Shown here: piece by piece, positions 44,749 to 63,727 of the stretch
Layout: each line of letters starts with the position of its first letter
Position numbering within the stretch: the first letter of the stretch is position 1
Source: Acidaminococcus sp.
Lineage (GTDB): Bacteria; Bacillota; Negativicutes; Acidaminococcales; Acidaminococcaceae
NCBI GenBank assembly: GCA_022482815.1
Contig: JAKVOM010000001.1
Coordinates: 1,302,001 to 1,366,000 of the forward strand
Direction: 5' to 3'
DNA length: 64,000 bases
Position numbers and translations under genes: made by a program
Notes under the pieces: generated by a model
What the model was told of the DNA's origin: nothing
What the model saw: only the letters and a program-made list of their open reading frames with translations
Databases searched by the model: none

Positions 44749-46161
44749 AAGTGTGTAAGTTTTTTTAGGTATCATAAAAGAAGATGCGTTACCAGTGATT
44801 GCTGGCTTTAAAATTTCTCGTATTTCAGGATACGAGCTTGCAGCTTATCATCCATAGCCAACTGGTTTCTGACCATCGCCCAGTTCTGGATATGATGCCC
44901 TTCCCACTTGGCATAGAGTTCCTTTACCCTGAGATAGAGAACCTTGAAGACAGATTCCTCGCTGGAGAACGAGCCCTTCTTGGTGACTTTTCGGAAGCTG
45001 GAATTCACGCTCTCTATCGCATTGGTGGTATACATCACCTTCCTTACGGCACTGCCATAGTTGAATAGTTGCTGGACATGCTGCCAGTTCCGCTTCCATG
45101 TTTCTACTGCACCGGGGTACTGGCTCCAGGCCTGCTTGAACCGCTCGAATTCGGTCTCAGCACTCTTCAGGTTCACGGCTCCATAGACCTTCCTGAGCTG
45201 GGTCGTGTAGGCCTTGTAATCCTTGGATGGGATGTACTTGATGGAGTTGCGGATCAGATGGACGATGCAGCGCTGCACGACCACCTGGGGGAAGATGGAC
45301 TTTGCTCCCTCTTCCAAACCGGAGACACCATCCATGCAGATGAATCCGACATCTTCAACGCCACGGGCCTTCAGCTCATCGAATATCTGCATCCAGTTAT
45401 GTTTGCCCTCCGTCTCGTTCATCCAAAGGCCCAGGACATCCTTCGAGCCATTGATGTCATAGCCGAGGATGACGTAGACAGCGTGGTTCTTGGTCTCATA
45501 ATCCTTGCGTACAGAGACGTACAGGCAGTCTACGAACAAGAAGGGGTAGAAGGGGTTCAGAGGACGTGTCTGCCAATGCTGGACTTCGTCCATCACTCGG
45601 TCTGTGATGTTCGAGATGCTCTCTGCGGACAGCTCGAATCCATAGATGTCATCAATCGTCTTGGCAATATCCCGCTGGCTCATGCCGCGTGCATACATGG
45701 CCAGTACCTTGCTCTCGATCCCTGTGACATCCTTGGTGCGTTTGGGGACTACCTGGGGCTCGAAGGTAGATTCGCGGTCCCGTGGGACGCGGATGGGGAC
45801 CTCGCCGACCGAAGTCTGGATGGTTTTCTCCGTATAGCCATTCCGACGGTTGGAGGTTTCCTTCTTGCTATGATCATTGGAGCTATACCCGAGATGGTTA
45901 TCTATCTCGCCCTGCAGCATAGCTTCGAAGATAGGACCGAACACGTCCTTCAGCGCTATCTGCATGTCTTCCTGCGTCTTCGGCTGGTATTGTTCCATGA
46001 TGAGCTTGGCGATTGCCTGGCCTTTCTCACTCGGGTTTCTACGTTTCTTCATCAGTGCTGTACTCAATTCCTTTCAACCTGCTTTCTGATAGTGTACCGC
46101 ACCTCGACAAAAAAATGAAGTGCGTAAGTTAGTAAATTGGTTACCGGTAACTTACACACTT
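44749..46161 (-). mobile_element. IS256-family insertion sequence
   Basis: One transposase gene between 13-bp inverted repeats: AAGTGTGTAAGTT at 44749-44761 and AACTTACACACTT at 46149-46161. Near the right end lies a further partial copy (AAGTGCGTAAGTTA, 46114-46127) that pairs with the terminal one and forms a hairpin. I see no matching 8-9 bp target duplication outside the repeats, so the exact ends are not certain. Confidence 0.75.
44808..46067 (-). CDS. IS256-family (mutator type) transposase
   Basis: 419 residues, full length and without a frameshift, so possibly active. Typical segments: MLQGEIDNHLGYSSNDHSKK, RRNGYTEKTIQTSVGEVPI, VPRDRESTFEPQVVPKRTKD, the DDE region FLFVDCLYVSVRKDYE (first Asp), FICMDGVSGLEEGAKSIFPQ (second Asp), QRCIVHLIRNSIKYIPSKD and TTNAIESVNSSFRKVTKKG. 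The start is a TTG at 46067 with AAAGGA very close, or an ATG at 46052. The long frame on the opposite strand is only its shadow. Confidence 0.93.
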   Translation of the reverse strand: MSTALMKKRRNPSEKGQAIAKLIMEQYQPKTQEDMQIALKDVFGPIFEAMLQGEIDNHLGYSSNDHSKKETSNRRNGYTEKTIQTSVGEVPIRVPRDRESTFEPQVVPKRTKDVTGIESKVLAMYARGMSQRDIAKTIDDIYGFELSAESISNITDRVMDEVQHWQTRPLNPFYPFLFVDCLYVSVRKDYETKNHAVYVILGYDINGSKDVLGLWMNETEGKHNWMQIFDELKARGVEDVGFICMDGVSGLEEGAKSIFPQVVVQRCIVHLIRNSIKYIPSKDYKAYTTQLRKVYGAVNLKSAETEFERFKQAWSQYPGAVETWKRNWQHVQQLFNYGSAVRKVMYTTNAIESVNSSFRKVTKKGSFSSEESVFKVLYLRVKELYAKWEGHHIQNWAMVRNQLAMDDKLQARILKYEKF

Positions 46162-46248: not shown

Positions 46249-46578
46249 CTATCTTTCTACCACAACGGTCAGGAGAACCAGGTCTTCCGTTCCCGTATTG
46301 ACCAGTTGATGCGCATGCCCCTTGGGACAAATATGGCATACACCACCGGTCAATTCTTCCTTTACACCATCACTGTACGCGATGCCTTTTCCTGAAATGA
46401 CGTAATTGATGTCATCGCTTGTCTGATGCAGATGCATGCCAATAGATCCTCCGGGATGAATCCGTGACAGAATCACTTTCCCATTTTTATCCATGTACAT
46501 TTTTGCACTCATCGTTCCGGTTCCCTTGTTCATTCCAGGGAAAACTTTATCTTGCATTTCATTAAAGTCAATTCGCAT
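46249..46578 (-). CDS. Small cupin-domain protein
   Basis: 109 residues, cytoplasmic, one cupin barrel. Motif 1 is RIHPGGSIGMHLHQTSDDI (two His, Glu replaced by Asp) and motif 2 VCHICPKGHAHQLVNTG. It may bind a metal and a small acid or sugar; the function is unknown. The ATG at 46578 follows AAAGGAGG. It stands alone between the IS element and the rlmD-side island and may mark the old chromosome border. Confidence 0.83.
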   Translation of the reverse strand: MRIDFNEMQDKVFPGMNKGTGTMSAKMYMDKNGKVILSRIHPGGSIGMHLHQTSDDINYVISGKGIAYSDGVKEELTGGVCHICPKGHAHQLVNTGTEDLVLLTVVVER

Positions 46579-46629: not shown

Positions 46630-46689
46630 TTATTTTACGGACAGTGCTTTTTGGTTCTTCCGGGACATCCATACGACTGTCTCGACATG
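46630..46689 (-). pseudogene. Remnant of the rlmD 3' end (likely att-site duplicate)
   Basis: On the minus strand these 20 codons read HVETVVWMSRKNQKALSVK and a stop. The first 10 match the last codons of the intact rlmD (HVETVVWMSRN, 49792-49832). At DNA level 25 of 27 bases agree from GACATCC to GACATGG, and both flanks then diverge abruptly. I take it for the displaced original 3' end. The rest of 46690-47006 shows no gene. Confidence 0.65.
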
Positions 46690-47006
46690 GTACGAGCCTT
46701 AGAAATGGCTGTCGGATGAGTTTTCGTTTACTGAAAGAAGTCGTTTCCTTGTTTGCAAAACGGGTCTAAATGAAAATCGGAGCAAAATGGCTGTAGTTTT
46801 GGTTCGGACCGTTTGTAATAACTGGTCTATGAGCGGGTTTCTTCTAAATTCTATGATGAGTACCGACAATTCTGCTAATCATCTCAAAGGTACGGTATGA
46901 TGGAAAAAGTTCAACAATCCATAATCCATCGTCTCAACATCCACTTCGTGGAAAACTCGTGTATCCGATTCATATCAGCCACTGCGATTACTTCCAGACG
47001 TAATAC

Positions 47007-48776
47007 CTATAATACCTGCGATTTAAATAATACTTTTTGTAATTCTGCTTTTAATAAATCTCTTCTCTGTTTAATAAATTTTGGGAAATTAGCATATGTA
47101 TAGTCTATATCTGGCAAATAATTCAGAGTACGATATTGATATTTATCATTATTTGTTGGAAATTGCGAATTGAACCAGACATCAAAGTCGGTTGACAGTT
47201 TTTCTTCATTGAGCTGTGCTGGTATTAACTGTAGATTAGATATTTCATTTACTGTATTTATATACCAATCCAATTTGTCATCCGAGATTCCTTGCTTCCG
47301 GAGATATGATTTTGTGAATTTACCCTTAGGATACATATGATCCATATGAAATTTATTACTAAAATCAAGCGACGGATAAAGAAGCATGAGGGTAGAAAGG
47401 GTGTCGCTCTTTCCATATTTCAAGTTTAGTAAAAAATCATCAATGTCATCAACCGTAAATTGGATTGATTTGATTGTACCTTTAAATCTTTCAATAATTT
47501 CATCCAACGGGTATTCATTTGAACCGTTCGCTTTAATAATTTCTCGTATTGGTCTCAGAACATTATCTGGCTGTCCACTGAATACTTTCTTCAGCAAAGA
47601 AAGAATAAGCCACTTTTTGATTTTTTCTCTATTTGCCTTTGATTTCCCGGAAGTTACAAAGTTATCAGGCATATGATTAATAAAAAGATAGTATGCAATT
47701 GGAATCAATGCATTATTTGATGACAATGTATCACCGGAATACCCGAACGAAGATACCAGTAGTACCGCTTGTCTAATTGCATGTTTGATATCATCCCATC
47801 GAGACTCTATTTTCATCATATTTTTCTTGTTGAAATTATCAACTTTGAATGCAATGTTAGGAAGGTCACTTAATACAAGTGATGTTTTCAATACAAAATC
47901 TTTGTTGATTCTAAAACCATCGCCGATTGCATTTATATCATCTACGAAATTGATGATTTCTTCTCTTGCATCATGGTTTTCCCACTGGGCAGACGCAATG
48001 GATAAAAGCAAATCAGAATAGCTGAGCTTTGTGCCTCCACTGTTAACTCTTATAAAAATATTCAGCACTTTATCTAATTCAACTGCTTTTTCTCGATAGT
48101 AGCTAATTGTACCGGATTTATTAATTACGTTATAGAGCCTGGATAGGGCGTTGATAGCAAATTTCGACTGCTCTTTAGTATAATCATATTTATCCGAATA
48201 GCTAATATTCTCATTTACATACATGAATACATCGCCATCTTCATGCATTTCAAGAATCTTCCCTATTTCAAACCAGTATGTGTTTTGGTCATTTTGTACT
48301 TCCTTTTCAGAAAGAAATCTGAAATCATATTCATTATCGCCATCTGGTGGCGAAGATAACAGGTTCAAATATAATTTCCTGACAGGATACGCATTTTGGT
48401 TGTTCCTAGCCATATATTTTAGTTTATATGCATAAGTGCCTTTTAATCCTAAATAAATAGAAGTAAGACGCTGTTGGCCATCGAGCACTGCAGTAACTCC
48501 ATTCGATCCCTTAAGATCCAATTTTTGATTATGGACATTTTTGTTCTCATGATAATTTCTGATAAATCCATAGAAATCATAATCTTTTACGTGATCCTTA
48601 TTGATTTCCCAAAACAGAAAGGTGCCAATTGGGTAATCCCTCATAAGAGAATCGAATAAAGTCTCTATTTGCTCTGTGCTCCATACATATTCTCTTTGAA
48701 TCGACGGAAGGACATATTTGTTTGCTGAAATATCATTCATAACCTCTGCAATTGTAAGTGGTGTTTCATAAGCCAT
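47007..48776 (-). CDS. DUF262 (GmrSD-like) protein with DUF1524/HNH-like C terminus
   Basis: 589 residues. The N-terminal DUF262 domain has SIQREYVWSTEQIETLFDSL and the nucleotide-binding VLDGQQRLTSIYLGL, followed by NIFIRVNSGGTKLSYSDLLL; the C-terminal part holds HMDHMYPKGKF, like the DHxxP motif of DUF1524 nucleases. Related proteins (GmrSD, type IV restriction) cut DNA with modified cytosines, so phage defence is likely. The gene is clearly more A+T-rich than its surroundings, which fits transfer. AGGAGG lies 10 bases before ATG 48776. No methylase or partner gene is adjacent. Confidence 0.85.
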   Translation of the reverse strand: MAYETPLTIAEVMNDISANKYVLPSIQREYVWSTEQIETLFDSLMRDYPIGTFLFWEINKDHVKDYDFYGFIRNYHENKNVHNQKLDLKGSNGVTAVLDGQQRLTSIYLGLKGTYAYKLKYMARNNQNAYPVRKLYLNLLSSPPDGDNEYDFRFLSEKEVQNDQNTYWFEIGKILEMHEDGDVFMYVNENISYSDKYDYTKEQSKFAINALSRLYNVINKSGTISYYREKAVELDKVLNIFIRVNSGGTKLSYSDLLLSIASAQWENHDAREEIINFVDDINAIGDGFRINKDFVLKTSLVLSDLPNIAFKVDNFNKKNMMKIESRWDDIKHAIRQAVLLVSSFGYSGDTLSSNNALIPIAYYLFINHMPDNFVTSGKSKANREKIKKWLILSLLKKVFSGQPDNVLRPIREIIKANGSNEYPLDEIIERFKGTIKSIQFTVDDIDDFLLNLKYGKSDTLSTLMLLYPSLDFSNKFHMDHMYPKGKFTKSYLRKQGISDDKLDWYINTVNEISNLQLIPAQLNEEKLSTDFDVWFNSQFPTNNDKYQYRTLNYLPDIDYTYANFPKFIKQRRDLLKAELQKVLFKSQVL

Positions 48777-48889
48777 GTTAAAGAATCCTCCTAACTTTTA
48801 TCTCCGTTAAACCAGATTGTTTGCCCTCTTCAAAGTAATTCTGTTTTCCTTATAGCTATAGCTGTCTAATCCGCCCCTGTTATTTTAAG

Positions 48890-49113
48890 TCCCTTTTTAT
48901 ATATGTCAGTTCGATGTCGTATCCTATCTTCTCTGTCATCTGGATGAAGGTTCAGTTGACAATCTTGCCTAGATTTGTGATGAAACTGCTGACATACGAC
49001 GCGGAAGTTTCAAACTTTCTCACAAGAGTTGCCTGCGTAGTCTGTTCTTCCAGACATTTTACTTTTACATCGATTCCGGTATTATTCTTAAGTGTAACTA
49101 TAACCTCATTGGT
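48890..49113 (-). pseudogene. Broken XRE-type regulator
   Basis: The minus strand reads QTTQATLVRKFETSASYVSS, then FITNLGKIVN, a TGA stop, TFIQMTEKIGYDIELTYIKR and the final stop. This is the pattern of a C-terminal XRE domain. The in-frame stop and the missing N terminus show that the gene has decayed. Confidence 0.6.
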
Positions 49114-49248
49114 TCAATTGAATTTCTCTTACGGCTAAATTTATTGTACTACATTCAGGTAATCTATACATTCCTATTTGAAAAAAGCATAAGAAAATGG
49201 CATAAAAAACAGCAGACAGATCATTTCCGACTACCTCACGGCTTTATC

Positions 49249-49557
49249 CTATCGATTGTTCCATTTAATTTTGCCAAAAATGTCACCGCAGTGCTCGCAG
49301 ATGATAACGTTGGATAAGGCGTATTTTGAATTGTAGACTCGTTTTTTGCCATCTTTGATGATATTTGTTCGTTTGTTAATCTTGGCATGTACTCAGAGGA
49401 ATACATCCCCGTCAATGATTGTTTCATTACTTTTCCACATGGTACATCGGCACTAACCTTCGTTTTTGATGTACCTATTTTTCAGAACATTCACCGTGTA
49501 GATTTTCTGCAGAAGTACATCCTCGATATACTTTCTCATATGAGATATTTCTGACCA
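49249..49557 (-). pseudogene. C-terminal remnant of a serine recombinase
   Basis: The minus strand reads WSEISHMRKYIEDVLLQKIY at one end, later NETIIDGDVFL, a stop, VHAKINKRTNIIKDGKK, and finally YNSKYALSNVIICEHCGDIF with GKIKWNNR and a stop. These are the recombinase domain and the Cys-X2-Cys zinc ribbon of large serine recombinases. At least two stops or shifts break it, and the catalytic N terminus is absent. Confidence 0.72.
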
Positions 49558-49576
49558 TAATCTTTGCTGTCCGCAT

Positions 49577-49622
49577 AGAAAAATACCTCCTACCAGGTAG
49601 CCTCGGCAGGAGGTATTTTTCT
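49577..49622. terminator. Perfect 15-bp inverted repeat, bidirectional terminator
   Basis: AGAAAAATACCTCCT and AGGAGGTATTTTTCT enclose 16 nt, with A- and T-tracts at the outer ends. It lies between the recombinase remnant and rlmD. Confidence 0.6.
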
Positions 49623-49791
49623 TAGACTTTTATATAAAAGTCGCAAATACAACTATCAGCCCGAAGAATCAGTCTACTGGCTCTTCGGGAACTTTCACAT
49701 AAGTTTGCAGATTGTTTCAAGACTTTCTCTCGGATCTGTTTCAATATTCAGTTCATCAAATCCCTTTATCTCAGGCTTCTCAGCCTCTTAT

Positions 49792-51171
49792 TTACTTATT
49801 CCTCGACATCCAAACGACCGTCTCGACATGGGCCGTTTGCGGGAACATGTCAACAGGCTGTACCTGCCGAATCTTATAGCCGCCTTCATGCAGGATAGCG
49901 GCATCCCGGGCAAGGGAAGCAGGGCCGCAGGATACGTAGACGACACGCTGCGGTTTAACAGCAAGAATTGCTTTCAGCACTTTCGGGTCGCAGCCGGCAC
50001 GGGGCGGGTCAAGAACGATCACGTCGGGACGAATCCCTTCCTTGACGAGGCGCGGCAGTTCTTTTGCTGCATCGCCGCAGATAAATTCACTGTTTTTAAT
50101 GTTATTTTGCTGCGCGTTTTTCCAGGCGTCTTTGATAGCGGGAGCTACAATTTCAATGCCGAGAGCGTGGCTGGCTTTTTGCGCCAGGAAAAGGGTAATG
50201 GTACCCGTACCGCAGTAGAGATCGATGACGTTTTCTTTTCCCGTCAGGGATGCGTAATGCAGTGCAGTTTCGTACAGGACTTCTGCCTGTCTGGTATTGA
50301 CTTGGAAGAAAGAAAGAGGCGAGATGGCAAAAGTCAGGTTTCCCAGCCGGTCATGAATGAAACCGGGGCCGTAAATAATCTTGCTCTTTGGCCCCATGAT
50401 GACGTTGGTGTGACGCGTGTTGATATTCTGAACCAGCGTGACAAAGCCGGGAATTTCTTTCTTGAGCATGGCGGCTAACTGTTTCAGATGGGGAACACGA
50501 TCCGTATTTGTGATGAGAACTGCCATGACTTCACCCGTATTGACGCCGACACGGCCCATGACATGGCGGACAATCCCCGTGCGGGCATCTTCATCAAGCG
50601 CCGGGATATGATACTGCTGCATCCATCTGCGGACAACTGACGCGATGCGATTATTGTTTTCGTCCTGGATTTGGCAGGTTTCTACGTTGATGACACGGTG
50701 CGTGCCTTGGGCAAAGCACCCGATGAGCAGCTCATGTTTTCGCCCTTCAGCCGCAGGGACCTGCATCTTATTGCGGTAATTCCATGGCGTTTTGGCTCCA
50801 AGCGTCGGGTTGACATTGATTCCTTTGAAATGACCGATGCGTTCCAGTGCGTCAATGACAGTCTGGCGTTTCAGTTTCAGCTGTGCTTCGTAAGAAAGAT
50901 GCTGTAGCTGGCAGCCGCCGCAGGCCTTATACACGGGGCAGGGCGGATTGACCCGATCCGGCGATGGAACCAGAATTTTATCCAGATGGGCCTGACCATA
51001 GGACTTCTTTACGACTGTTACGGCAGCAGACACACGCTCGCCGGGGAGCGCTCCGGGGACAAAAAAGGTAAATCCTTTCACTTTACCGACACCCTCGCCG
51101 GAACTGCCAAGACCCGTAATCGTGACTTCTATATGTTGTTTAGGTGTGAACTTTACTTTTTCCGTATTCAT
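49792..51171 (-). CDS. rlmD: 23S rRNA (uracil-C5)-methyltransferase RlmD/RumA family
   Basis: SAM-dependent methyltransferase of 459 residues. N-terminal TRAM domain (EVTITGLGSSGEGVGKVKGF), a cysteine cluster for [4Fe-4S] (CPVYKACGGCQLQHLSYEAQ), and the catalytic part: SFFQVNTRQAEVLYETAL, NVIDLYCGTGTITLFLA, VIVLDPPRAGCDPKVL and VYVSCGPASLARD with the nucleophile Cys. ATG 51171 fits the family; TATAAT lies only 9 bp before it and no ribosome site is visible, so the mRNA may be leaderless. Its 3' end borders the degraded island. Confidence 0.9.
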   Translation of the reverse strand: MNTEKVKFTPKQHIEVTITGLGSSGEGVGKVKGFTFFVPGALPGERVSAAVTVVKKSYGQAHLDKILVPSPDRVNPPCPVYKACGGCQLQHLSYEAQLKLKRQTVIDALERIGHFKGINVNPTLGAKTPWNYRNKMQVPAAEGRKHELLIGCFAQGTHRVINVETCQIQDENNNRIASVVRRWMQQYHIPALDEDARTGIVRHVMGRVGVNTGEVMAVLITNTDRVPHLKQLAAMLKKEIPGFVTLVQNINTRHTNVIMGPKSKIIYGPGFIHDRLGNLTFAISPLSFFQVNTRQAEVLYETALHYASLTGKENVIDLYCGTGTITLFLAQKASHALGIEIVAPAIKDAWKNAQQNNIKNSEFICGDAAKELPRLVKEGIRPDVIVLDPPRAGCDPKVLKAILAVKPQRVVYVSCGPASLARDAAILHEGGYKIRQVQPVDMFPQTAHVETVVWMSRNK

Positions 51172-51546
51172 AACATAAACATTATACAAAGGAAGCTGGG
51201 GGAGCGCAAGAATACCAGGAGCGGGTCCGATGCTATATGCCAAATGCCAAAAGCTGCTAAATTCGCTTTTCTTTCTGCTAACGGCGAGCTGCCGTCTGTC
51301 TTGGGTTTCACCCTAACAAGCTGTCTGTACCATGGTACTATCCACTATTTGCTAACTATTATCCACTACTTATTTTTATACAATTTCCCATTGACAGAAA
51401 TCCCTTTTATCCTCTACCATATACATATAAGAGAAGACGCGACCTGCTGGCCAGCGCCTTTTTTCAGATACTCTTATGATACAAAAATAACTAATTCATG
51501 TATAAAAAATAAAAGAGTAGTAAACATACCTCGAAGGGAGATGCGG
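51172..51546. other. Gap with rlmD promoter and partial mosaic-repeat sequence
   Basis: A minus-strand promoter TTGCGC-17-TATAAT serves rlmD. At 51228-51260 stands a short repeat piece (ctatatgccaaatgccaaaagc, in outline, minus orientation) and at 51345-51375 'ctatccactatttgctaactatt'-like direct repeats as also seen at 27116 and 57700. No riboswitch of the fluoride type was found before crcB. Confidence 0.5.
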
Positions 51547-60988: not shown

Positions 60989-62113
60989 TTAAATTGTGTT
61001 CAACGCTTTAACAACGTCGTTTTCCATTTTTTCGGAAACGTGACTGTAAACGGCTAAAGTAGTCGCTGGGTCATTGTGCCCGACTCTTTGCATTATCGCT
61101 TTTAACGGTACGCCTTTTTCGGCTAACATTGAAATGTGCGTATGCCGGAAAATATGAGTAGACAATTTCTTTTTATAGTTTAGCTTCCGGAGCTGCCGAT
61201 TGACGTAAGAAATGTCAACGGGTCCTCCGTCGCGGTTAGTAAAGATAAACTTTTCTTTTCTTCTGTCGTGAATTGTTGGTTCCCAAGCGCGCCTCATTTT
61301 GTTACGGATAACAAATTTATCAATGATCTTTTTTGCTTTTGCGTCTAACTTTACCTTCCGGACGGAGTAAGCGTTTTTCGGCGTACCTCTTTCCGGGACC
61401 TCTCCGCGTTTCCTAGACCATACTAGCGTACCATTTACAAAGACGCTTTCACCGTCGTAGTCCTCATCACGCAGGGCGGCAAGCTCTCCGTATCGTAGGC
61501 CGGTCAATGAAAGAAATTCGCAAATGTCGGCGACTCTTTCATCCTTCTTTCTCAGGAGACTAATGACTTCTTTCAATTCGTCTACTGTCAGGAATTTTTG
61601 CGCGTGGCTCTCAACTTTTTTAAGAGACTGTTGCTCCCGGCCGACGACAACACAACGCACGGCGTCGGCGGATTTAATCAAGCCTAGACGTTCTCCCAAC
61701 AAATACGTGCCGCGTAGCATGACTAACATTTTTACCGCGTAATTCCGGCTCTGACGCTTTTTCAAGTCGTCCAGTATAAACTGTATATCTACCGGCTTTA
61801 ATCGCTCCGCAAGGGCATCCTCGTCAACGTAGCGGGCTAAACGTTTCTTTAATCTCAAATAGTTTAGCATTGTACCGCTCTTGATGGTATCTTCCTTGCT
61901 TTTTAAGAAACGGTCTATCAAGTCGAAAAGTTTAACGTCTGACTGCCGCTCCGTCTTTTCTTTAATGAGTGCCGCCAGTTTTTCCTCCGCTGCCTTTTTC
62001 TGCGCGCGGTTTTTACCTGGCATACTGACAGAAACTTTTTTCCTCTTGCCGGTCAGCGGGTCTTTATACATTTCCCGGAATGCGTAACCTGTTTTAGTTT
62101 TCTCTATCCACAT
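60989..62113 (-). CDS. int: Tyrosine-type integrase
   Basis: 374 residues, phage/ICE type. N-terminal arm-binding domain (TGYAFREMYKDPLTGKRKKV), core-binding SAM-like domain (~60-160), and catalytic domain with SLTGLRYGELAAL (Arg I), a beta-hairpin Lys region, HIFRHTHISMLAEKG (H-x-x-R) and QRVGHNDPATTLAVYSHVSE (His, Tyr nucleophile). ATG 62113 has GGAAGG five bases before it. The gene points toward tRNA-Ser, as expected for integration at its 3' end. Confidence 0.95.
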   Translation of the reverse strand: MWIEKTKTGYAFREMYKDPLTGKRKKVSVSMPGKNRAQKKAAEEKLAALIKEKTERQSDVKLFDLIDRFLKSKEDTIKSGTMLNYLRLKKRLARYVDEDALAERLKPVDIQFILDDLKKRQSRNYAVKMLVMLRGTYLLGERLGLIKSADAVRCVVVGREQQSLKKVESHAQKFLTVDELKEVISLLRKKDERVADICEFLSLTGLRYGELAALRDEDYDGESVFVNGTLVWSRKRGEVPERGTPKNAYSVRKVKLDAKAKKIIDKFVIRNKMRRAWEPTIHDRRKEKFIFTNRDGGPVDISYVNRQLRKLNYKKKLSTHIFRHTHISMLAEKGVPLKAIMQRVGHNDPATTLAVYSHVSEKMENDVVKALNTI

Positions 62114-62471
62114 TGTTACCTTCCTTTCTCCACATTGCAAGGATAACAAAGATTATCACGTGGACTACATAGAGACGAATAGGAAGAATGAATACAGGGA
62201 AAGAATATAAAATCGGATGCTTTACTTCAATGTCCCGTAGGCGCTTTGCAACTAGCACCCATTCAGCGACATCAAACAGGAAATAGACGATAAACGCGGG
62301 CAACAACTGACTAGCATTAAATAGCTGCGTCCGGTAGGCATTGTCTATACAATACAGAATAAAAACATACACGACATTTTGCACTAAAAATCCTATTCCC
62401 GGCTTACGTCTCAATTTAAAATTAAATGGCGAAAACAGTGTATCAAAAGTTTCCTTTGCTCCTTTATTCAT
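62094..62471 (-). CDS. Small membrane protein of the integrated element
   Basis: 125 residues with three to four hydrophobic segments. The AEWVLVAKRLRDIEVKHP turn recalls DUF805-type proteins, but the match is weak. The C terminus overlaps the integrase start by 20 bp, so the two are probably translated in sequence. AGGAGG before the ATG. Function unknown; possibly superinfection exclusion. Confidence 0.6.
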   Translation of the reverse strand: MNKGAKETFDTLFSPFNFKLRRKPGIGFLVQNVVYVFILYCIDNAYRTQLFNASQLLPAFIVYFLFDVAEWVLVAKRLRDIEVKHPILYSFPVFILPIRLYVVHVIIFVILAMWRKEGNNVDREN

Positions 62472-62966: not shown

Positions 62967-63236
62967 CTAAATAACCTTGTAAAAGAAATCGATCCCTTTT
63001 AATGAGACACTTTTTGTATTTTCCCGGACGTCTTTTTCAATCTTAGTAGCATCTGTTTTTTCTGTTGTGAAGTCGGCACGGATAATATGGGCTAGTTCGT
63101 GGACAACGGCAGCTTGTTTTTTGACTGGTGATAATGATGCACGGACAACTATTGTAATACTGTCGTCCGCGTTCAATACAGATAAAGCATCGATACCGCC
63201 AGGGAGCTTGGATGATTGTAGAACATTAACGGTCAA
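62967..63236 (-). CDS. Short ImmA/IrrE-like HExxH protein
   Basis: 89 residues with the zinc-protease signature VVHELAHIIRAD in the middle. ImmA-type proteins cleave phage repressors after DNA damage. This one is much shorter than usual (~130-250). It starts with TTG overlapping the repressor's stop (TTGA), with AAGGA six bases ahead, so translation is coupled to the repressor gene. That it inactivates the adjacent repressor is inferred. Confidence 0.65.
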   Translation of the reverse strand: MTVNVLQSSKLPGGIDALSVLNADDSITIVVRASLSPVKKQAAVVHELAHIIRADFTTEKTDATKIEKDVRENTKSVSLKGIDFFYKVI

Positions 63237-63622
63237 GACTTATCCTTCTCTCTTTGTTTTAAGTAGATAATGTAATTGTATGCTTCTTTCATACTTTCTG
63301 GGGGTAAATCTTGGGACGCTTTAAAAAGCATTCTCAATCCTTCGTTGGTCCTTAGCTTTTCAGCAAGCGCGGCTGTATCGTCGTTTGTATAGTAGTGCTT
63401 CCCTTCGTGGGCTTCGACTAAATCCGCTTTATTAATGCCAAAGTATTTAGCCATCTTTTCAATCTTATCAATACGCGGGTAAGCATGACCGTTTACCCAA
63501 TCCGAAAAAGTCGAATACTTGAAGCCTAGATCATCACAGATTTTATGCCTGTCTATTCCTTTCAATGCCATATAGTATTGAATGTTCTTAGCCATTATCG
63601 TTTTATTACCTAAACCGCCCAT
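63233..63622 (-). CDS. CI-like repressor with XRE domain
   Basis: 129 residues. N-terminal HTH: NIQYYMALKGIDRHKICDDL, GFKYSTFSDWVNGHAYPRID, KIEKMAKYFGINKADLVE; the C-terminal 60 residues are helical and have no LexA-type protease site. ATG 63622 has AAGGAGG ahead. Its promoter TTGAAA (63670-63675)-17-TATAAT (63647-63652) contains operator 1. It should keep the element silent. Confidence 0.88.
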   Translation of the reverse strand: MGGLGNKTIMAKNIQYYMALKGIDRHKICDDLGFKYSTFSDWVNGHAYPRIDKIEKMAKYFGINKADLVEAHEGKHYYTNDDTAALAEKLRTNEGLRMLFKASQDLPPESMKEAYNYIIYLKQREKDKS

Positions 63623-63650
63623 TTTAACGCCTCCTTCTGTACCAAAATTA

Positions 63651-63727
63651 TACGGTAAATCCGTAAAATTTTCAACGGGCCAGACAAAAAAATACGGTTT
63701 AACCGTTGACATTACGATTTAATCGCA
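63651..63727. promoter_or_regulatory. Lysogeny-type switch: three 15-bp operators between divergent promoters
   Basis: Operators follow TACGRTTTAAYCGTA: TACGGTAAATCCGTA (63651-63665, inside the repressor promoter), TACGGTTTAACCGTT (63693-63707) and TACGATTTAATCGCA (63713-63727). The Cro-side promoter is TTGACA (63706-63711)-17-TAGAAT (63729-63734), so the last two cover its -35 and spacer. Confidence 0.8.

What the first reader, a model, noticed from the sequence alone, without database searches (positions are those of the whole stretch)
46630..49835. Scar of an integrative element at the 3' end of rlmD
The last ~27 bp of rlmD recur, in the same orientation, 3.1 kb away and continue there into an alternative C terminus (KNQKALSVK). 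Between the two lie an A+T-rich DUF262 gene, a broken XRE gene and the C-terminal remnant of a serine recombinase. This is the pattern of attL and attR around a shrunken element that swapped the end of its target gene; rlmD/rumA-type genes are recurrent insertion sites of such elements in Firmicutes.
Basis: partly seen in the sequence, partly recalled or inferred. Interest (0 to 1): 0.75.

Follow-up and report, generated by a model that had tools for sequence, protein, structure and literature searches.

The report
Collapsed prophage scar keeping defence gene
A virus that once inserted itself into the end of a ribosome-modifying gene of a gut bacterium has decayed to a 3-kb scar, leaving behind one gene that still looks intact and probably helps the cell resist other viruses.

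Summary
The 3' end of rlmD (49804-49831, minus strand) recurs at 46663-46690 in the same orientation, 25 of 28 bases; the next best same-strand match in the window is 17 of 28. The host is an Acidaminococcus.

The island is the collapsed right end of a rlmD-integrating, triple-serine-recombinase prophage: attL core, phage arm, end of a phage DNA polymerase, its terminator hairpin, middle of the third recombinase, broken XRE gene, intact DUF262 gene, attR. Ruminococcus phage NatCom_38182 has the same order and orientation and lies at an rlmD 3' end; its attR was not found.

The sequence after the core at rlmD resembles phage arms (z 6.3, 0 of 300 shuffles), that after the distal core does not (z 1.0). 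So the present RlmD tail is phage-derived and KNQKALSVK is the displaced host tail.

The surviving cargo is a full-length HEC-05 gene (E 1.9e-226), a BrxU-type restriction enzyme by sequence. Three of six related loci tested carry strong defence-gene matches in the same slot.

rlmD integration is known; this is a new member, with a possible defence-cargo slot as the interesting part.

The parts
49792..51243 (-). rlmD (23S rRNA uracil-C5 methyltransferase), target gene; present end ...HVETVVWMSRNK*
   Evidence: Pfam PF05958 and TRAM; ORF
49804..49831 (-). attL: att core at the 3' end of rlmD
   Evidence: 25 of 28 identical to the distal copy; next best same-strand match in the window 17 of 28
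49758..49803 (-). phage-derived attachment arm (P') giving rlmD its present tail, stop codon and following hairpin
   Evidence: the 60 bases after the core resemble 48 distinct arms after the same core in IMG/VR loci, z 6.3, 0 of 300 shuffles
49628..49757 (-). remnant of the C terminus of a phage DNA polymerase, frameshifted
   Evidence: two collinear tblastn pieces to residues 618-661 of 662 of the NatCom_38182 polymerase, E 2.4e-5; of two other phage polymerases one gives the same place at E 0.43 and one gives nothing there
49573..49614 (-). terminator-like hairpin that follows the polymerase gene in related phages
   Evidence: 90% identical over 42 bases to NatCom_38182 just after its polymerase; also in phi1605 and NatCom_28274
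49240..49605 (-). remnant of the third large serine recombinase (middle part); the match runs into the hairpin
   Evidence: tblastn to residues 223-350 of 521 of NatCom_38182 LSR3, E 1.6e-27; 2 stop codons in 106 codons
48886..49092 (-). broken XRE-type regulator gene
   Evidence: 54% identical over 69 aa to the small gene after LSR3 in NatCom_38182, E 2.4e-21; 1 stop in 77 codons
47007..48776 (-). intact HEC-05 gene (DUF262/GmrSD-N plus His-Me-finger-like C terminus), BrxU-type candidate restriction enzyme, with an AGGAGG upstream of its ATG
   Evidence: PADLOC PDLC04151 E 1.9e-226, residues 1-584 on profile 20-594 of 600; Pfam GmrSD_N E 7.3e-34; solved chain 7p9k_A E 5.1e-139 over residues 3-583; motifs kept
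46663..46690 (-). attR: distal att core
   Evidence: direct repeat of attL; following sequence lacks the phage arm, z 1.0, 51 of 300 shuffles
46630..46689 (-). displaced original rlmD end, HVETVVWMSRKNQKALSVK*
   Evidence: translation; arm test
46249..46578 (-). cupin-domain gene flanking the island on the host side
   Evidence: Pfam Cupin_2

Best explanation
A temperate phage of the Phi-m46.1 / NatCom_38182 kind, with three large serine recombinases, integrated at the 3' end of rlmD. Its attP carries a copy of the target coding sequence, so strand exchange gave rlmD a phage-encoded tail and stop codon (attL) and pushed the host's own tail to the far end (attR). The prophage then collapsed. 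One deletion joined the attL arm to the last codons of the phage polymerase gene. A second removed the first two recombinases and the start of the third. A third removed the end of the third. The remaining recombinase, polymerase and XRE pieces decayed. The cargo gene between the recombinase module and attR, HEC-05, stayed intact and probably still works as a BrxU-type (type IV) restriction enzyme: DUF262 senses modified phage DNA using nucleotide hydrolysis, and the C-terminal His-Me nuclease cuts it. Shown: the repeat, the arm, the order of remnants, the intact HEC-05 frame with its motifs. Inferred: number and order of deletions, HEC-05 activity, and that HEC-05 came with the phage.
For: Repeat 25 of 28. 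Arm test: window rlmD z 6.3 and A. intestini rlmD z 6.7 (0 of 300 shuffles each); the other 10 of 12 sites, among them the distal copy, z 1.6 or less. Collinear remnants against NatCom_38182: polymerase E 2.4e-5, hairpin 90% over 42 bases, LSR3 E 1.6e-27, XRE E 2.4e-21. That phage has rlmD (51% over 215 aa), core, arm, polymerase, three recombinases and XRE in the same order and orientation. The same core lies in 50 IMG/VR loci, 30 of which hold a related recombinase. HEC-05 is full length with no stop in 589 codons, against 3 stops in the 183 recombinase and XRE codons. Its QR, DGQQR, FxxxN and H/N/N positions, the motifs named for this family in PMC11411939 (passages), are among the 76 positions invariant in 13 sequences.
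Against: No second strain of the species with an empty or full site was available. The nearest relative (a different species) has a different rlmD tail and different downstream genes. No attR core could be found at the far end of NatCom_38182 (best 19 of 32). Two other phage polymerases do not support the polymerase remnant at a significant level (E 0.43 at the same place, and none). The test of the arm on the other side of the core was not discriminating. HEC-05 differs from its 10 close homologues at 12 of 160 otherwise invariant positions, the second highest count of 11. 8 of 12 other HEC-05 homologues have neither a related recombinase nor the att core within the stretch fetched.
Confidence: 0.88

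Rival explanations
1. The scar is old and HEC-05 arrived later and independently, so it is not phage cargo; its intactness then reflects recency, not selection.
For: HEC-05 has no stop codons while its neighbours do; NatCom_38182 carries two other small genes in that place; 8 of 12 HEC-05 homologues are not near such elements.
Against: HEC-05 lies inside the att repeats, directly after XRE. A HEC-05 gene also starts 251 bases after a recombinase triplet in G155 and another lies 2.1 kb before an att core in G147; a distant DUF262 relative (30%) lies 2.5 kb before a core in G293. I saw no further repeat or integrase marking a separate insertion.
Confidence: 0.25
2. The element was an ICE or mobilisable element rather than a phage. 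Streptococcal ICEs with serine integrases also use rumA and exchange the C terminus.
For: Published for single serine integrases in Streptococcus (PMC4701971, passages). Recombinase relatives occur on plasmids too (148 records).
Against: The polymerase end, the hairpin and XRE match a phage genome in order. In those ICEs att lies inside the integrase gene, which is not so here.
Confidence: 0.1
3. The repeat is a partial duplication of rlmD by ordinary recombination, with no site-specific integration.
For: A direct repeat alone would fit.
Against: Phage arm after the rlmD copy only; recombinase, polymerase and XRE remnants between the copies; the core is found in 50 viral contigs.
Confidence: 0.02

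Closest known systems
Ruminococcus phage NatCom_38182 (PV036450.1, labelled Ca. Heliusvirales in the record)
   Same: One end lies in an rlmD 3' end; same core and arm; polymerase, hairpin, three recombinases and XRE in the same order and orientation
   Different: A full 53.6-kb prophage record; no HEC-05 is annotated in the 10.7 kb of it that I fetched; its attR was not found
Streptococcus pyogenes phage Phi-m46.1
   Same: [quoted passage not shown] its 18-bp attB covers the same HVE codons (PMC4288039, passages; the codon reading is mine)
   Different: Its sequence was not aligned here; per the passages, mef(A) is used for the attL junction and tet(O) for the attR junction
Erysipelothrix phages phi1605 / phiEr670
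   Same: phi1605 has the same hairpin after the polymerase and a recombinase triplet; phiEr670-like prophages are flanked by RlmD (PMC12785378, passages)
   Different: Complete prophages carrying resistance genes
Streptococcal rumA ICEs with one serine integrase
   Same: Insertion exchanges the 3' end of rumA and changes the protein's C terminus (PMC4701971, passages)
   Different: Conjugative, single integrase, att inside the integrase gene; triplets are reported there in hsdM, mutT and traG
BrxU / HEC-05 (GmrSD-type type IV restriction enzymes)
   Same: Full-length PADLOC match and full-length match to solved chain 7p9k_A, E 5.1e-139 (that this entry is BrxU is recalled, the table says DUF262 protein). 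PMC11411939 (passages) equates HEC-05 with BrxU and says it functions independently
   Different: No activity was tested here; here it sits alone in a prophage scar, not in a BREX or Hma cluster

Membership tests
rlmD/rum-integrating triple-serine-recombinase prophages (Phi-m46.1 / NatCom_38182 kind) | att core at the HVE codons of the rlmD 3' end, duplicated around the element | tested here: met
   published attB position
rlmD/rum-integrating triple-serine-recombinase prophages (Phi-m46.1 / NatCom_38182 kind) | phage arm after the core at rlmD, absent after the distal core | tested here: met
   z 6.3 against 1.0
rlmD/rum-integrating triple-serine-recombinase prophages (Phi-m46.1 / NatCom_38182 kind) | polymerase, hairpin, recombinase, XRE in this order | tested here: met
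   remnants of each, collinear with NatCom_38182
rlmD/rum-integrating triple-serine-recombinase prophages (Phi-m46.1 / NatCom_38182 kind) | three intact recombinases and virion genes | tested here: not met
   only the middle of one recombinase remains and the island is 3.1 kb; hence a remnant, not a functional phage
rlmD/rum-integrating triple-serine-recombinase prophages (Phi-m46.1 / NatCom_38182 kind) | empty site in a strain of the same species | not testable with these tools
   one genome per species held; nearest relative is another species
HEC-05 / BrxU | full-length match to the family | tested here: met
   residues 1-584 on profile 20-594 of 600; 3-583 on chain 7p9k_A
HEC-05 / BrxU | DUF262 motifs QR, DGQQR, FxxxN and His-Me finger H, N, N | tested here: met
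   Q27 R28, D99-R103, F241/N245, H480, N514, N523 are among the 76 positions invariant in all 13 sequences; motif names from PMC11411939 passages; assigning H480/N514/N523 to the finger is my reading
HEC-05 / BrxU | protects against phage with modified DNA | not testable with these tools
   needs an experiment
rumA ICE (single serine integrase) | att lies within the integrase gene | tested here: not met
   the recombinase remnant starts ~200 bases from attL and ends ~2.5 kb from attR

The most novel reading that the evidence does not exclude
The stretch between the recombinase module and the attachment site of rlmD-integrating phages is a standing cargo slot for anti-phage genes across Firmicutes. 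When such prophages collapse, the slot outlives the rest, so rlmD scars are a route by which hosts acquire and keep single defence genes such as HEC-05/BrxU.
Probability: 0.4. Interest if true: 0.62.

Novelty: new member of a known kind. Interest (0 to 1): 0.42.

Why it matters
It turns an odd repeat into a readable fossil: which rlmD tail is host and which is phage, what kind of phage left it, and what was kept. It extends rlmD-targeting phages of the Phi-m46.1 kind to Acidaminococcus, with a second clear phage arm at rlmD in A. intestini, and offers a compact example of a prophage reduced to one candidate defence gene. If the slot proves general, the rlmD 3' end becomes a simple address at which to look for defence genes in Firmicutes.

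Tried and rejected
A C-terminal recombinase fragment near 46.9 kb, seen by eye: dropped, no Pfam or tblastn support. The middle recombinase piece itself had no Pfam match and only weak NCBIfam matches (E 0.006 and 0.0076); its identity rests on tblastn to phage recombinases. An HMM of arms with nhmmer: too weak, the window site was not listed at E 5 or better; replaced by an alignment score against shuffles, chosen after the HMM had failed. The mirror test on the other side of the core: not discriminating, ordinary rlmD ends scored as high, and a cleaned set of 40 gave no usable consensus. Searches of viral contigs for close RlmD and HEC-05 relatives: nothing confirmed. The cupin as an empty-site marker: no use. 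A second att core in the nearest relative: none above the opposite-strand background, 20 against 19 of 33.

Limits of counts: the pattern found an RlmD end in 36 of 80 loci; the other 44 were not scored for second copies. Of the 36, five had a second copy at 9 or fewer mismatches in 33 (L013, L014, L024, L080 on the same strand, L076 inverted). One search stopped on an N before L099, L093 and L094; redid these (L099 none: 20 against 19 of 33). PADLOC was run on 6 of the 10 loci with more than 600 bases between recombinase and core; L138, L193, L202 and L217 were not submitted, nor was one further ORF of L198.
Full report
WHAT IS THERE. The window lies in a 3.06-Mb one-contig genome. Its nearest named relatives by RlmD are Acidaminococcus, and the 8 other genomes held of its genus were searched. 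rlmD runs on the minus strand from 51243 to 49792. Its last codons (49804-49831) recur at 46663-46690, same orientation, 25 of 28 bases; the next best match in the 64 kb is 17 of 28 on the same strand and 18 of 28 on the other. The distal copy reads on into KNQKALSVK and a stop at 46630. Between them G+C drops to 30-38%.

WHICH COPY IS PHAGE AND WHICH IS HOST. A scan of IMG/VR for the core gave 50 loci with 52 sites. 30 of the 50 loci hold a large serine recombinase related to those of phage NatCom_38182. A loose pattern called 9 of 52 sites rlmD-like before the core, and 11 of 50 loci hold an RlmD relative by tblastn, so the majority are not plain rlmD ends. After the core many share a loose arm: a short open tail, a stop and a stretch of the form GGCTTGAAATAAAGGGATTTCCG (by eye). 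I scored the 60 bases after the core at 12 Acidaminococcus sites against 48 distinct arms, with 300 dinucleotide shuffles each. The window's rlmD site scored z 6.3 and the A. intestini rlmD site z 6.7, 0 of 300 shuffles reaching either. The other 10 sites, including the window's distal copy (z 1.0) and the A. intestini distal copy (z 0.5), scored 1.6 or less. A profile HMM of the same arms had not listed the window site. So the present end of rlmD is best read as attL with a phage arm, and the distal copy as carrying the host's original tail. The matching test before the core did not discriminate.

WHAT LIES BETWEEN. Compared with NatCom_38182 proteins by tblastn against the whole window: the polymerase C terminus (residues 618-661 of 662) at 49757-49628, two collinear pieces in different frames, E 2.4e-5 and the best place in the window; the third recombinase, residues 223-350 of 521, at 49605-49240, E 1.6e-27; the small XRE gene, residues 2-70 of 75, at 49092-48886, E 2.4e-21. 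Two other phage polymerases gave E 0.43 at the same place and nothing there. Between polymerase and recombinase sits a hairpin 90% identical over 42 bases to the one 27 bases after the polymerase in NatCom_38182, also found in Erysipelothrix phage phi1605 and Ruminococcus phage NatCom_28274 just after their polymerase genes. One end of the NatCom_38182 record lies inside a host rlmD gene (51% over 215 aa), goes on through the same core and arm (nhmmer E 0.0011), and the other end holds polymerase, hairpin, three recombinases, XRE and two small genes. The window keeps this order and orientation with three gaps. The left gap removed nearly all the phage; the other two trimmed the recombinase module. 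No attR core was recognised in NatCom_38182 (best 19 of 32).

THE SURVIVING GENE. 48776-47007 encodes 589 aa. Pfam gives GmrSD_N; PADLOC gives HEC-05 over its whole length, E 1.9e-226; NCBIfam gives nothing. The one solved chain matched is 7p9k_A, E 5.1e-139 over residues 3-583, a DUF262 protein (that it is BrxU is recalled). PMC11411939 (passages) equates HEC-05 with BrxU, a GmrSD-family enzyme that degrades DNA with modified cytosines and works alone. With 12 homologues, 76 positions are invariant in all 13, among them Q27 R28, DGQQR (99-103), F241 and N245, H480, N514 and N523, which fit the motifs named in that paper. The window differs at 12 of 160 positions invariant among its 10 closer homologues, mostly conservative by eye; leave-one-out counts for those ten run from 0 to 16. 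It has no stop in 589 codons, while the recombinase and XRE pieces have 3 in 183. At that rate about 10 would be expected, so it is either selected or young (inference). An AGGAGG lies just upstream of its ATG.

IS THE SLOT SPECIAL? Of 70 loci given to, 19 have a recombinase upstream of the core on the same strand. The gap is under 220 bases in 9, 0.68-1.73 kb in 5, and 2.3-6.7 kb in 5. Of the 10 with over 600 bases I submitted 6 to PADLOC: strong hits in three (L136 IetA, IetS, type II methylase and restriction enzyme, Vsr; L195 Ppl, E 1.7e-84; L198 PD-Lambda-3_B, E 2e-59), one weak (L222, AriAB, E 2.8e-7), none in L199 and L197. L138 looks by eye like a macrolide efflux pair and was not submitted. 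HEC-05 was found in 13 of 398 phylum genomes including this one at E 1e-30. All 12 others were looked at in stretches of 12-20 kb. In G155 it starts 251 bases after a recombinase triplet and is followed by a Qat system; that this element uses rlmD is not shown, since an att core with an arm lies 23 kb further on and the G155 rlmD end itself has no arm (z -0.1). In G147 it lies 2.1 kb before an att core with an arm (z 9.5), beside type III RM and HamA-like genes, with no recombinase in the stretch. In G293 a distant relative (30%) lies 2.5 kb before a core (z 5.3). G103 has a weak recombinase match (28%) 4.4 kb away. The remaining 8 have neither. This is suggestive, not proof, of a defence slot; the loci were not chosen at random and no matched control was run.

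ORIENTATION VARIES. In G147 the recombinases at the rlmD side face rlmD, and L139 and L144 are also convergent. So not every rlmD element has the window's layout; the 19 loci and NatCom_38182 do.

OTHER ACIDAMINOCOCCUS. A. intestini (L013) has a second core 5.9 kb downstream and L014 one 3.4 kb downstream; L014 shows no clear arm at rlmD (z 1.6). The nearest relative (L012/L092, RlmD 91%) has one core, another tail and other neighbours. Five further genomes have native-looking ends without an arm.

WHAT IS KNOWN. Phi-m46.1 integrates at the 3' end of rum, with an 18-bp attB over the same codons (PMC4288039, passages). Streptococcal ICEs exchange the rumA C terminus (PMC4701971, passages). phiEr670-like prophages are flanked by RlmD (PMC12785378, passages). 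Phi1207.3, a related prophage at another site, carries restriction-modification genes and one gene after its last recombinase (PMC4260502, passages). I saw no title or abstract start on such a scar in Acidaminococcus or on a defence slot in these elements in the listings; these are capped listings, not readings, and no search named Acidaminococcus.

VERDICT. It is a new member of a known kind, well resolved, with a promising but unproven wider pattern.

Noticed in passing
G000:C1 824688-824987, 867436-869730, 3031163-3031444 (own genome, outside the window): Further large serine recombinases elsewhere in the genome; the one at 824.8 kb has a 38-residue HEC-05-like stretch about 0.7 kb downstream. 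No rlmD-type core in the 20-kb stretches around them.
   Followed up: partly
L013 1870 and 7816; L014 11357 and 14730: Second rlmD 3'-end copies downstream of rlmD in two other Acidaminococcus; A. intestini also has the phage arm at rlmD.
   Followed up: partly
L024 10469 and L080 14596: Same-strand second copies of the rlmD 3' end in Schwartzia (0.67 kb downstream, 27 of 33) and Propionispira (3.3 kb, 26 of 33).
   Followed up: no
L047 and L044, 11389: In two Selenomonas ruminantium genomes a second att core with arm-like sequence begins about 30 bases after the rlmD match.
   Followed up: no
L034 near 12850: A second rlmD C-terminal fragment about 1.5 kb downstream of a complete rlmD in a Selenomonas genome.
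   Followed up: no
L076 14007 (minus): An inverted copy of the rlmD 3' end, 32 of 33 bases, 2.7 kb downstream in Melghirimyces.
   Followed up: no
G147:C1 2808579, 2869138, 2929114: Three att cores in one orientation about 60 kb apart, the last at rlmD: apparently two elements in tandem at one rlmD.
   Followed up: partly
window 44808-46067: An intact Mutator-family (IS256-type, name recalled) transposase next to the cupin gene, which may have disturbed the host side of attR; the 76 bases at one end recur once elsewhere in the genome.
   Followed up: no
window 60989-62149 and 63233-63712: A tyrosine-integrase-like gene and an XRE-type gene at the window's right end, looking by eye like a second, separate integrated element.
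   Followed up: no
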